From positions 1-64,000 of the forward strand of contig JAPOQA010000054.1 of NCBI GenBank assembly GCA_026710945.1: DNA of 64,000 nucleotides, written 5' to 3'. The translations under genes and the position numbers were made by a program. The stretch's first letter is position 1. Every line of letters starts with the position of its first letter. Below are positions 55,409 through 62,422 of this stretch, in pieces. A model generated the notes under the pieces. It had not been told where the DNA came from and made no database searches. It saw nothing but the letters and a program-made list of their open reading frames with translations. This stretch comes from Chloroflexota bacterium (GTDB lineage: Bacteria > Chloroflexota > UBA11872 > VXOZ01).

Positions 55409-55484
55409 GCGCCTGTAGCTCAGTGGACAGAGCATCGGTCTTCGGAACCGAGGGTCGGGGGTTCGAATCCCTCCAGGCGTGCCA
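55409..55484 (+). tRNA. tRNA-Arg (anticodon TCG)
   Basis: 76 bases that fold as a complete cloverleaf: acceptor GCGCCTG/CAGGCGT, D arm GCTC/GAGC, anticodon stem TCGGT/ACCGA with loop CTTCGGA (anticodon TCG, codon CGA), T arm GGGGG/CCCTC with TTCGAAT loop. The discriminator is G and CCA is encoded. A TATACT lies about 17 bases upstream. No integration or attachment duplicate was seen downstream. Confidence 0.96.
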
Positions 55485-60490: not shown

Positions 60491-62089
60491 TCACGCCTCT
60501 TCCGGCCAGTCGAGCATTTGCACGGTGACGTCGCTGCCGGGCTCGACATAAGTGGTGTGCTCGGAGATGATGGCGAGGCCGTTGGCTTTGGCGAGGGACG
60601 TGAGAAGCTGCGACCCCTGCTCGCCGGTGAGCCGCGCGGTGTAGCCGTGGTCGTCGCGCTCGACGATGACGCGCACGAACTGGCGGCGGCCGTGGTTCTC
60701 CATGCCGTCCAGGAAACGGGCCGTGACGGTGGTCTTGTGTAGGTGTGTGTGGCCCTGCATGACGAGAAGCGCCGGGCGGACGAATTCCTCGAAGGTGACA
60801 TAAGCCGAGACTGGATTGCCGGGCAGGCCGACCACGGGGACGCGGCGGCTGGGAGCATCGGAAGTAAGATGGATTCCCGCTTTCGCGGGAATGACGGAAT
60901 CTGAGGCATTCGCGGGAGTGATGGGACCCGAAACCTCCGCGGGAATGGACCCCTCACCCTGACCCTCTCCCCCAGGAGAGGGAAGTATTCCCGATTGCGC
61001 GGGAGTGTCGGACGTACCTGCATACTCTTCGGTTGCGCTCGTGGGCTTGGCGGATGCGACCGGGTCTTCTGGTGAGCAGGGCGAAGACTGGATTCCGGCT
61101 TGCGCCGGAATGACGGATGTGTCCGTTTCTTTGTCGGGTTGCGCGCTGGCCTCAGCGGCACGTGCTGGTCCCTCAATGTGTCCGAAAGCCAGCGGCTTGC
61201 CGGGGCGCATGCGGATGCGCCAGAAATCTATTTCGCCTTCCGCGCCCAGCACGTTGCGCACGAGGTCATAGTCGCCCATGGAGACCCCGCCGATTGTCAC
61301 GATCAGGTCACAATCGAGGCAGGAGAGCAGCGCCGCGCGGGTCTCTTCAACTGTGTCACCGACCACGGGCAGTCGTCGAGGAATGCCGCCATAGCGAGTG
61401 ACAAGCGCTTCCAGGGCGTGGGCCGCGCTATTGCGAACTTGCCCCGGCTGCAAAGGCTGGTCAATCTCGATCACCTCGTCGCCGGTGGGGATCACGGCCA
61501 CCACGGGCCGCCGGTATACTGCGACCTGTGACTTTCCCAAAGAGGCCATCACACCAATTTCGGCAGGACGCAGGCGTTGTCCTTGCAAGAGCACGGTCTC
61601 GCCGGCTTTGATGTCTTCCGCGCGAAAACGCACGTTGTCCTGGTACTCCGGAGCCAGCAGGATGCCGACGGTGGCAGGATCGCCGCTTGCGCCGGGGGGC
61701 GTGCCGAATTTCGCCCAGTCGGTGCGATCGGTATCCTCAAAAGGCACCACAGCGTCGCTCCCCGGCGGTACCGGCGCGCCGGTCATGATGCGCACGGCCT
61801 CGCCAGCCCCCAGCGGGTTAGAAGGAACTGAACCGGCGGCCAGGTCGCCAACCACGCGCAAATGGACCGGCTGCGCCTCGCTCGCCGCCTGCGTGTCGGC
61901 AAAGCGCACGGCGTAGCCGTCCATGGCCGAGTTATCGAACGCGGGCACGTCTTCGGCGCTCACCACGTCCTCCGCCAGCACGCGGCCGAGGGTGTCCATC
62001 AGGGGCACTGTCTCCGATGCAAGTGCGGAGAACTGGGAGACGATGCGCGCGAACGCTTCTTCTACGCTGAGCATGCGGTCTTTGGGCAT
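60491..62089 (-). CDS. moeA: molybdopterin molybdenumtransferase MoeA with inserted repeat segment
   Basis: A 532-residue enzyme that inserts molybdate into adenylylated molybdopterin. Normal MoeA is about 400 residues. Family motifs are FDNSAMDGYA, MTGAPVPPGSDAVVPFE, the MoaB/MogA-like IPTGDEV, TIGGVSMGDYD and GLPGNPVSAYVTF. Residues ~307-414 are an extra segment not found in MoeA, rich in VIPAQAGIQ, PAKAGIH and SPGGEGQGEG, the translations of palindromic repeats. It lies in a surface loop between two catalytic motifs (MRPGKPLAFGHI and VVGLPGNP). The frame is unbroken, so the protein may still fold. No other molybdenum-cofactor gene is near. Confidence 0.9.
   Translation of the reverse strand: MPKDRMLSVEEAFARIVSQFSALASETVPLMDTLGRVLAEDVVSAEDVPAFDNSAMDGYAVRFADTQAASEAQPVHLRVVGDLAAGSVPSNPLGAGEAVRIMTGAPVPPGSDAVVPFEDTDRTDWAKFGTPPGASGDPATVGILLAPEYQDNVRFRAEDIKAGETVLLQGQRLRPAEIGVMASLGKSQVAVYRRPVVAVIPTGDEVIEIDQPLQPGQVRNSAAHALEALVTRYGGIPRRLPVVGDTVEETRAALLSCLDCDLIVTIGGVSMGDYDLVRNVLGAEGEIDFWRIRMRPGKPLAFGHIEGPARAAEASAQPDKETDTSVIPAQAGIQSSPCSPEDPVASAKPTSATEEYAGTSDTPAQSGILPSPGGEGQGEGSIPAEVSGPITPANASDSVIPAKAGIHLTSDAPSRRVPVVGLPGNPVSAYVTFEEFVRPALLVMQGHTHLHKTTVTARFLDGMENHGRRQFVRVIVERDDHGYTARLTGEQGSQLLTSLAKANGLAIISEHTTYVEPGSDVTVQMLDWPEEA
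60848..61171. repeat. in-frame palindromic repeat block inside moeA
   Basis: The 324 bases hold at least three copies of a palindrome with the form ATTCCCGC-N4-GCGGGAAT (60873-60892; variant at 60987-61006; ATTCCGGC-TTGC-GCCGGAAT at 61092-61111) plus a CCCTCTCC-CCCA-GGAGAGGG stem (60963-60982). These are repeat types widely scattered in intergenic regions of environmental genomes. Here the whole block is an exact multiple of three and stays open in the moeA frame. Confidence 0.85.
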
Positions 62090-62225: not shown

Positions 62226-62422
62226 CCAAGCGGCGGGGGACAAGCCTCCGCGCTACGGCTATGCACCCAGACCGAAAAGGTCTAGCTCCAATGCTACGAA
62301 GCAGCCTCCAAGCAGGCGGGGGACAAGCCCCCGCGCTACGACTATGCATTCGGACCGAAAGGGTCTAGCTCCAGTGCTACGAATTAGCCTCCAAGCAGGC
62401 GGAGGACAAGCCCCCGCGCTAC
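62226..62422. repeat. 82/83-bp tandem repeat with paired hairpins
   Basis: About 2.4 copies of a unit starting near CCAAG at 62226, 62308 and 62391 (periods 82 and 83). Each full unit has two hairpins: GCGGGGG-ACAAG-CCCCCGC (7-bp stem; the first and third copies vary) and AGACC-GAAAA-GGTCT (in copy two the pair is GGACC/GGTCT). It lies between the moeA and aldehyde dehydrogenase genes, both on the minus strand. No spacer variation or cas gene supports CRISPR. Confidence 0.85.

What the first reader, a model, noticed from the sequence alone, without database searches (positions are those of the whole stretch)
60848..61171. Palindromic repeats translated in frame inside MoeA
About 108 codons between two catalytic motifs of moeA consist of repeat elements that are normally intergenic (inverted ATTCCCGC-type units and a CCCTCTCC/GGAGAGGG stem). 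The block is a multiple of three and has no stop codon. It breaks a conserved enzyme at a loop, which shows either a tolerated protein insertion or a recently inactivated gene. Translation of repeats into protein segments (as in Rickettsia palindromic elements) is rarely noted in this kind of bacterium.
Basis: partly seen in the sequence, partly recalled or inferred. Interest (0 to 1): 0.65.

Follow-up and report, generated by a model that had tools for sequence, protein, structure and literature searches.

The report
Palindromic DNA repeats inside intact MoeA
In a Chloroflexota genus with sponge-associated members, short palindromic DNA repeats have entered a loop of the enzyme MoeA and are read as about 110 extra, probably floppy amino acids without breaking it; all related species checked carry such a loop at the same place with different repeat content, so this is a long-lived, reshuffling insertion of a kind known in other bacteria, not a dead gene.

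Summary
The moeA ORF (60491-62089, minus strand, 532 aa) carries a 109-codon, stop-free, in-frame insert (60842-61168) that outgroup MoeAs lack exactly (query residue 307 joins 417). It holds two perfect CGTC-1-type REPs, one variant REP and one CCCTCTCC/GGAGAGGG stem, but only about 38% of it is recognisable repeat.

MoeA is not inactivated. dN/dS is about 0.1 upstream and 0.07 downstream of the insert, active-site residues are kept, and the model folds normally with only residues 313-411 disordered. It is the only MoeA found in a genome with two molybdenum hydroxylases.

The insert is not recent. All four complete relatives in the genus carry one at the same hairpin tip, 64-161 aa long (counted between fixed motifs), always in frame, with different content, at pairwise dS 0.46-0.73.

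It is not unique. Of 100 exact REPs surveyed in the genome, 11 lie in frame in eight coding genes. The three of these checked in relatives (a hydratase/dehydrogenase, a methylase, a Fe-S membrane protein) also have genus-wide, length-variable inserts.

In-frame REPs are documented (Di Nocera 2013; Rickettsia RPEs). This is a new, large, evolving example in Chloroflexota, a phylum outside that paper's CGTC list.

The parts
60491..62089 (-). moeA, molybdopterin molybdotransferase, 532 aa, intact
   Evidence: ORF; Pfam MoeA_N, MoCF_biosynth, MoeA_C all over cut-off; fold = gephyrin E/Cnx1E/MoeA
60842..61168 (-). in-frame insert, residues 308-416 (109 codons), absent from outgroup MoeAs; predicted disordered at 313-411
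   Evidence: outgroup matches contiguous at 307|417; loop length 12 residues in 40 of the diverse MoeAs whose motifs matched; pLDDT<50 at 313-411; coordinates
61089..61117 (-). CGTC-1-type REP, near the N-terminal end of the insert (encodes SVIPAQAGIQ); stem ATTCCGGC, loop GCAA
60984..61012 (-). variant CGTC-type REP (2 mismatches; encodes SDTPAQSGIL)
60950..60982 (-). second repeat family, CCCTCTCC....GGAGAGGG stem with flank (encodes PSPGGEGQGEG); 118 genomic sites
60906..60932 (-). degenerate half-REP (74% to the neighbouring copy)
60870..60898 (-). CGTC-1-type REP at the C-terminal end of the insert (encodes DSVIPAKAGIH); present at the same place, stem perfect, in all five genus members

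Best explanation
The block is an in-frame nest of CGTC-type REP elements in the hairpin loop between the RPGKP and GLPGNP motifs of a working MoeA. Shown: the insert is genus-specific, in frame, genus-wide, variable in length and content, predicted disordered, and flanked by enzyme sequence under strong purifying selection. Inferred: a REP, or a few, entered this loop once in the ancestor of the genus. It survived because the REP unit has no stop in five of its six reading frames and because the loop can hold an unstructured peptide. The nest then grew and shrank by further REP arrival, duplication of REP fragments in codon multiples and loss, with selection discarding every change that shifted the frame. 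No role for the peptide is needed: different genes read the same REP in different frames, so the DNA element rather than the peptide is the common unit.
For: Outgroup MoeAs lack the block exactly, including MoeAs of other REP-rich genera of the class (G007, G025). Four of four complete relatives have inserts of 64, 124, 138 and 161 aa at the same place, against 112 aa here counted between the same motifs; all are in frame and stop-free. dN/dS is 0.099 before and 0.073 after the insert, so the sequence downstream is still translated in frame and selected. Of 13 active-site positions, 11 are identical to E. coli MoeA and 2 are K-to-R. AlphaFold2: core mostly above pLDDT 90, residues 313-411 below 50; Foldseek best hits are gephyrin E, Cnx1E and MoeA. 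Turnover: a 27-bp (9-codon) tandem array of a half-REP in G002 and a 9-bp-periodic array in G004. Open frames: five of six for the REP-A unit. Recurrence: 11 of 100 exact REP sites lie in frame in 8 coding genes, read in different frames; three of these genes were checked in relatives and show variable inserts across the genus. It is the only MoeA found, and the genome has two molybdenum-hydroxylase genes.
Against: No expression or protein data, so translation of the insert is inferred from selection on the downstream part. The C-terminal REP is nucleotide-identical over 8 amino-acid-invariant codons in five genomes, although only 38% of comparable flank codons are. That is more conserved than pure neutrality predicts; it could mean homogenisation by other REP copies, hairpin-templated correction, or DNA/RNA-level selection. 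No dedicated transposase was found next to CGTC REPs, so how the first copy arrived is not shown.
Confidence: 0.87

Rival explanations
1. moeA has been inactivated by the insertion and is a young pseudogene.
For: The insert separates two conserved motifs of the active-site domain, and REPs are normally intergenic.
Against: Low dN/dS on both sides, intact active-site residues, no stops, presence in all five genomes at dS about 0.65, only MoeA in a genome with Mo hydroxylases.
Confidence: 0.02
2. The insert is kept by selection because the REP hairpin acts in the mRNA or DNA (pausing, stability, protein binding), or because the disordered linker has a function.
For: The C-terminal REP is nucleotide-invariant at 8 amino-acid-invariant codons in five species. 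In-gene REPs keep complementary arms through double changes (ACTCCCGC/GCGGGAGT, ATTCCCGT/ACGGGAAT). Inserts persist in four different genes across the genus.
Against: Content and length vary widely; the folding energy of the block is not unusual against shuffles (z = -0.93); the same REP is read in different frames in different genes; ACT-type palindromes also occur elsewhere as a genomic subfamily (12 sites against 98 canonical), so inheritance or homogenisation explains paired arms without selection.
Confidence: 0.1
3. Assembly or binning artefact joining moeA with repeat sequence.
For: Repeats are common sites of mis-assembly, and the window is from a 70-contig assembly.
Against: Independent assemblies of four other species, one with a 1.29 Mb contig, have an insert at the same codon position, with clean flanks and correct frame.
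Confidence: 0.01

Closest known systems
Intragenic CGTC and GTAG REPs (Di Nocera, De Gregorio and Rocco 2013, PMC3733652)
   Same: Same element class by its description (CGTC tag, 8-bp stem starting AT, 4-nt loop, CCA tail = CGTC-1); in-frame insertion into coding genes; clusters translated as 43-82 aa in Thauera and R. conorii; UvrA among the recurrent targets; different REPs at about the same site of recB in two Xanthomonas species.
   Different: Larger inserts (109 aa here, up to about 160 in a relative), present at one loop in all five genomes of the genus that span it, with content turning over and REP fragments expanded into codon-multiple tandem repeats; phylum Chloroflexota, which is not in the paper's list of five CGTC phyla.
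Rickettsia palindromic elements (RPE-4 and RPE-6 are CGTC-4 and CGTC-1 according to PMC3733652; RPE-1 is a longer insert)
   Same: Palindromic repeats translated in frame inside conserved enzymes, apparently tolerated.
   Different: Shorter inserts in that paper (mostly 20-30 aa, 43-82 aa for clusters); here two unrelated repeat families plus simple repeats are mixed in one loop.
Neisseria dRS3 (CGTC-1 according to PMC3733652)
   Same: Same ATTCCC....GGGAAT palindrome class.
   Different: [quoted passage not shown] here single copies and a subset inside enzymes.

Membership tests
CGTC-1 REP elements (PMC3733652) | Unpaired CGTC (or TGTC/CCTC) tag at one end | tested here: met
   83 of 100 sites CGTC, 4 TGTC; both moeA copies carry CGTC
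CGTC-1 REP elements (PMC3733652) | 8-bp stem with A and T in the first two positions and a 4-nt loop | tested here: met
   Stem ATTCCSGC and loop of 4 nt are imposed by the search pattern; 141 sites at up to 1 mismatch against 0 in the reversed control; loops GAAA and GCAA dominate
CGTC-1 REP elements (PMC3733652) | Short unpaired tail fitting CCA | tested here: met
   93 of 100 sites, both moeA copies
CGTC-1 REP elements (PMC3733652) | No adjacent dedicated transposase | tested here: inconclusive
   No exact copy of either repeat within the fetched stretches around the four Y1_Tnp genes; L197 is flanked by GTAG-type repeats and L199 by another palindrome family; neighbours of all REP sites were not examined
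Intragenic REP insertion | REP lies inside a conserved coding gene, in frame, with an uninserted homologue | tested here: met
   Outgroup MoeAs contiguous at the site; selection on both halves
Intragenic REP insertion | Insert is translated in vivo | not testable with these tools
   Inferred from dN/dS of 0.073 downstream of the insert
MoeA / gephyrin E / Cnx1E family | MoeA_N, MoCF_biosynth and MoeA_C domains with active-site residues | tested here: met

The most novel reading that the evidence does not exclude
In this genus REPs act as a standing generator of new disordered protein segments: a fixed set of enzyme loops are long-lived landing sites where repeats arrive, expand in codon multiples and are homogenised, and in some genes the result has become functional or is held by selection on the REP hairpin itself.
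Probability: 0.12. Interest if true: 0.75.

Novelty: new member of a known kind. Interest (0 to 1): 0.48.

Why it matters
It gives a natural series (five species, one loop, five different repeat-built inserts, plus three more genes with genus-wide inserts) for watching mobile palindromes turn into protein sequence and for asking whether such segments are neutral ballast or become useful. It also shows that an insert between two MoeA motifs need not mean a dead gene, and it adds Chloroflexota to the phyla with CGTC REPs and REP-decorated enzymes.

Tried and rejected
Pseudogene: rejected by selection on the downstream half. Assembly chimera: rejected by independent assemblies. Unusual RNA structure of the block: folding energy not different from shuffles, z = -0.93. 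Rfam: only a tRNA at 55409-55481, nothing at the repeats. Searching the insert as a protein found only moeA orthologues. A first codon-usage screen on half the sites found four genes and was superseded. Spanning ORFs with low coding score (such as L125, L165, L275) were treated as spurious. Papers: one directly relevant (PMC3733652); RepRanger (PMC12306157) has no 'intragenic' or 'in-frame' passage in its main text and says REPs seldom overlap coding regions; other searches gave nothing decisive.

Full report
What was checked. The moeA ORF at 60491-62089 (minus strand) is 532 aa and matches MoeA_N, MoCF_biosynth and MoeA_C over their cut-offs. Between the motifs RPGKP and GLPGNP it carries the reported block. 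Two perfect ATTCCSGC(N4)GCSGGAAT palindromes lie at 60873-60892 and 61092-61111, a variant at 60987-61006, and one CCCTCTCC(N4)GGAGAGGG stem at 60963-60982. These are the only copies with 2 or fewer mismatches in the 64 kb. The genome has 141 and 118 sites of the two families at up to 1 mismatch, with none in the reversed-pattern control.

What the block is made of. By similarity to other genomic copies, 38% of the 336 nt between fixed motifs is recognisable repeat, falling in four stretches. The rest is Ala/Pro/Ser/Gly-rich low-complexity sequence. So 'consist of repeat elements' is too strong; 'seeded by repeat elements' is closer.

Clean absence in outgroups. In most of the class- and phylum-level MoeAs listed, matches run to query residue 305-307 and resume at 417, contiguously or within a few bases in the DNA. 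In 40 diverse MoeAs the distance between GKP and GLPGNP is exactly 12 residues; four others have 13-18 and one Chloroflexota has 24, while two very large values came from the pattern starting too early in the protein. The loop therefore accepts insertions occasionally, but nothing like 109 aa. Other genera of the class rich in the same repeat (for example G007 and G025, 128 and 251 exact sites) have no MoeA insert.

Genus-wide and turning over. All four complete relatives (G001-G004) have an insert at the same place, 124, 161, 64 and 138 aa respectively against 112 aa here on the same measure, all in frame and stop-free. The fifth relative's contig ends before the site. The C-terminal REP with its following sequence aligns in all five, pointing to one ancestral event (inference). 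In between, content differs: duplicated REP-B units in G001, a 27-bp tandem array of a half-REP in G002, and a (GSP)n-like 9-bp-periodic array in G002 and G004.

The enzyme is alive. Pairwise dS over the flanks is 0.46-0.73. Mean dN/dS is 0.099 upstream and 0.073 downstream of the insert. Of 13 E. coli MoeA active-site positions, 11 are identical and two Lys are Arg. It is the only MoeA found in the genome, and two molybdenum-hydroxylase genes need its product (the need is established knowledge of the Moco pathway). The AlphaFold2 model has a confident core and pLDDT below 50 only for residues 313-411, between strands 301-307 and 415-421. The best structural matches are gephyrin E, Cnx1E and MoeA.

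Not unique to moeA. The gene context of 100 exact REP-A sites was examined. Eleven lie in spanning ORFs with good coding score on both sides, in eight genes. Pfam identifies seven of them: moeA, a 3-hydroxyacyl-CoA dehydrogenase/enoyl-CoA hydratase fusion, an Eco57I-type methylase, UvrA (three exact copies), an APH-type phosphotransferase, a family 2 glycosyltransferase and a type ISP enzyme. The eighth has no Pfam hit; I call it a Fe-S membrane protein from its Cys-rich motifs (inference). Since ORFs of 900 nt or more alone cover about 77% of the window, 11% inside genes means most in-gene arrivals have been lost. The hydratase fusion, methylase and Fe-S protein were followed in the genus: each has variable-length, repeat-bearing inserts at a fixed place, although exact palindromes have decayed in some methylase copies. 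Absence in outgroups was tested only for moeA.

Frames. The REP-A unit is open in five of six frames. moeA reads it as VIPA(K/Q)AGI, while the hydratase, Fe-S protein, methylase and UvrA read it as DSR.RGND or HSRESGNP types. The shared thing is the DNA element, not a peptide.

Possible constraint on the repeat itself. The C-terminal REP of moeA is nucleotide-identical at all eight amino-acid-invariant codons in five species; the only variable codon is AAA/CAA in the loop. In the flanks 38% of such codons are invariant, and 4 of 330 eight-codon windows are fully invariant. Several in-gene variants change both arms together, but the ACT-type variant also exists as a genomic subfamily. Homogenisation by other copies, hairpin-templated correction or selection could each explain this; the data do not separate them.

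Place among known things. The repeat fits the CGTC-1 description of Di Nocera et al. (tag in 83 of 100 and CCA tail in 93 of 100 sites, 8-bp stem, 4-nt loop; PMC3733652). That paper reports intragenic REPs, clusters encoding 43-82 aa, UvrA among the repeated targets, and CGTC repeats in five phyla without Chloroflexi. The present case is the same kind of thing, larger, followed across a genus, and in another phylum.

Source organism. Records of the relatives are Chloroflexota MAGs. That several come from marine sponges is my reading of isolate names such as RHO and SB0662, not a tool result.

Noticed in passing
62233-62422: Three GTAG-type palindromes (GTAGCGCGGGGGCTTGTCCCCCGC) at 83-bp spacing just upstream of the moeA start, none expected by chance.
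   Followed up: partly
L197 (G000:C59:100002-100304), L199 (G000:C21:12492-12734): Y1_Tnp transposase genes flanked on both sides by inverted palindromic repeats (GTAG-type in L197), as expected for REP-associated tyrosine transposases.
   Followed up: partly
L253 (G000:C49:4063-10465), ORF 1-2655 minus: UvrA with six in-frame CGTC-type REP units (three exact) in a stretch of roughly 140 aa after the UvrA interaction domain; UvrA is also a recurrent REP target in PMC3733652. Orthologues not checked.
   Followed up: partly
L013 2464-2618: In G002 moeA a half-REP has become a 27-bp (9-codon) tandem array of 5.7 copies.
   Followed up: partly
L201-L205, L253: In-gene REP variants ACTCCCGC(N4)GCGGGAGT and ATTCCCGT(N4)ACGGGAAT keep both arms complementary through double changes.
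   Followed up: partly
L214-L216 (Fe-S protein orthologues): Inserts in relatives also carry the CCCTCTCC-family repeat in another frame (HPHPGPLPQGRG), so two unrelated repeat families co-occupy the same loops in at least two genes.
   Followed up: no
L226 (G004:C78:42656-44974): The G004 methylase orthologue match contains one in-frame TGA stop, unlike the other genus members.
   Followed up: no
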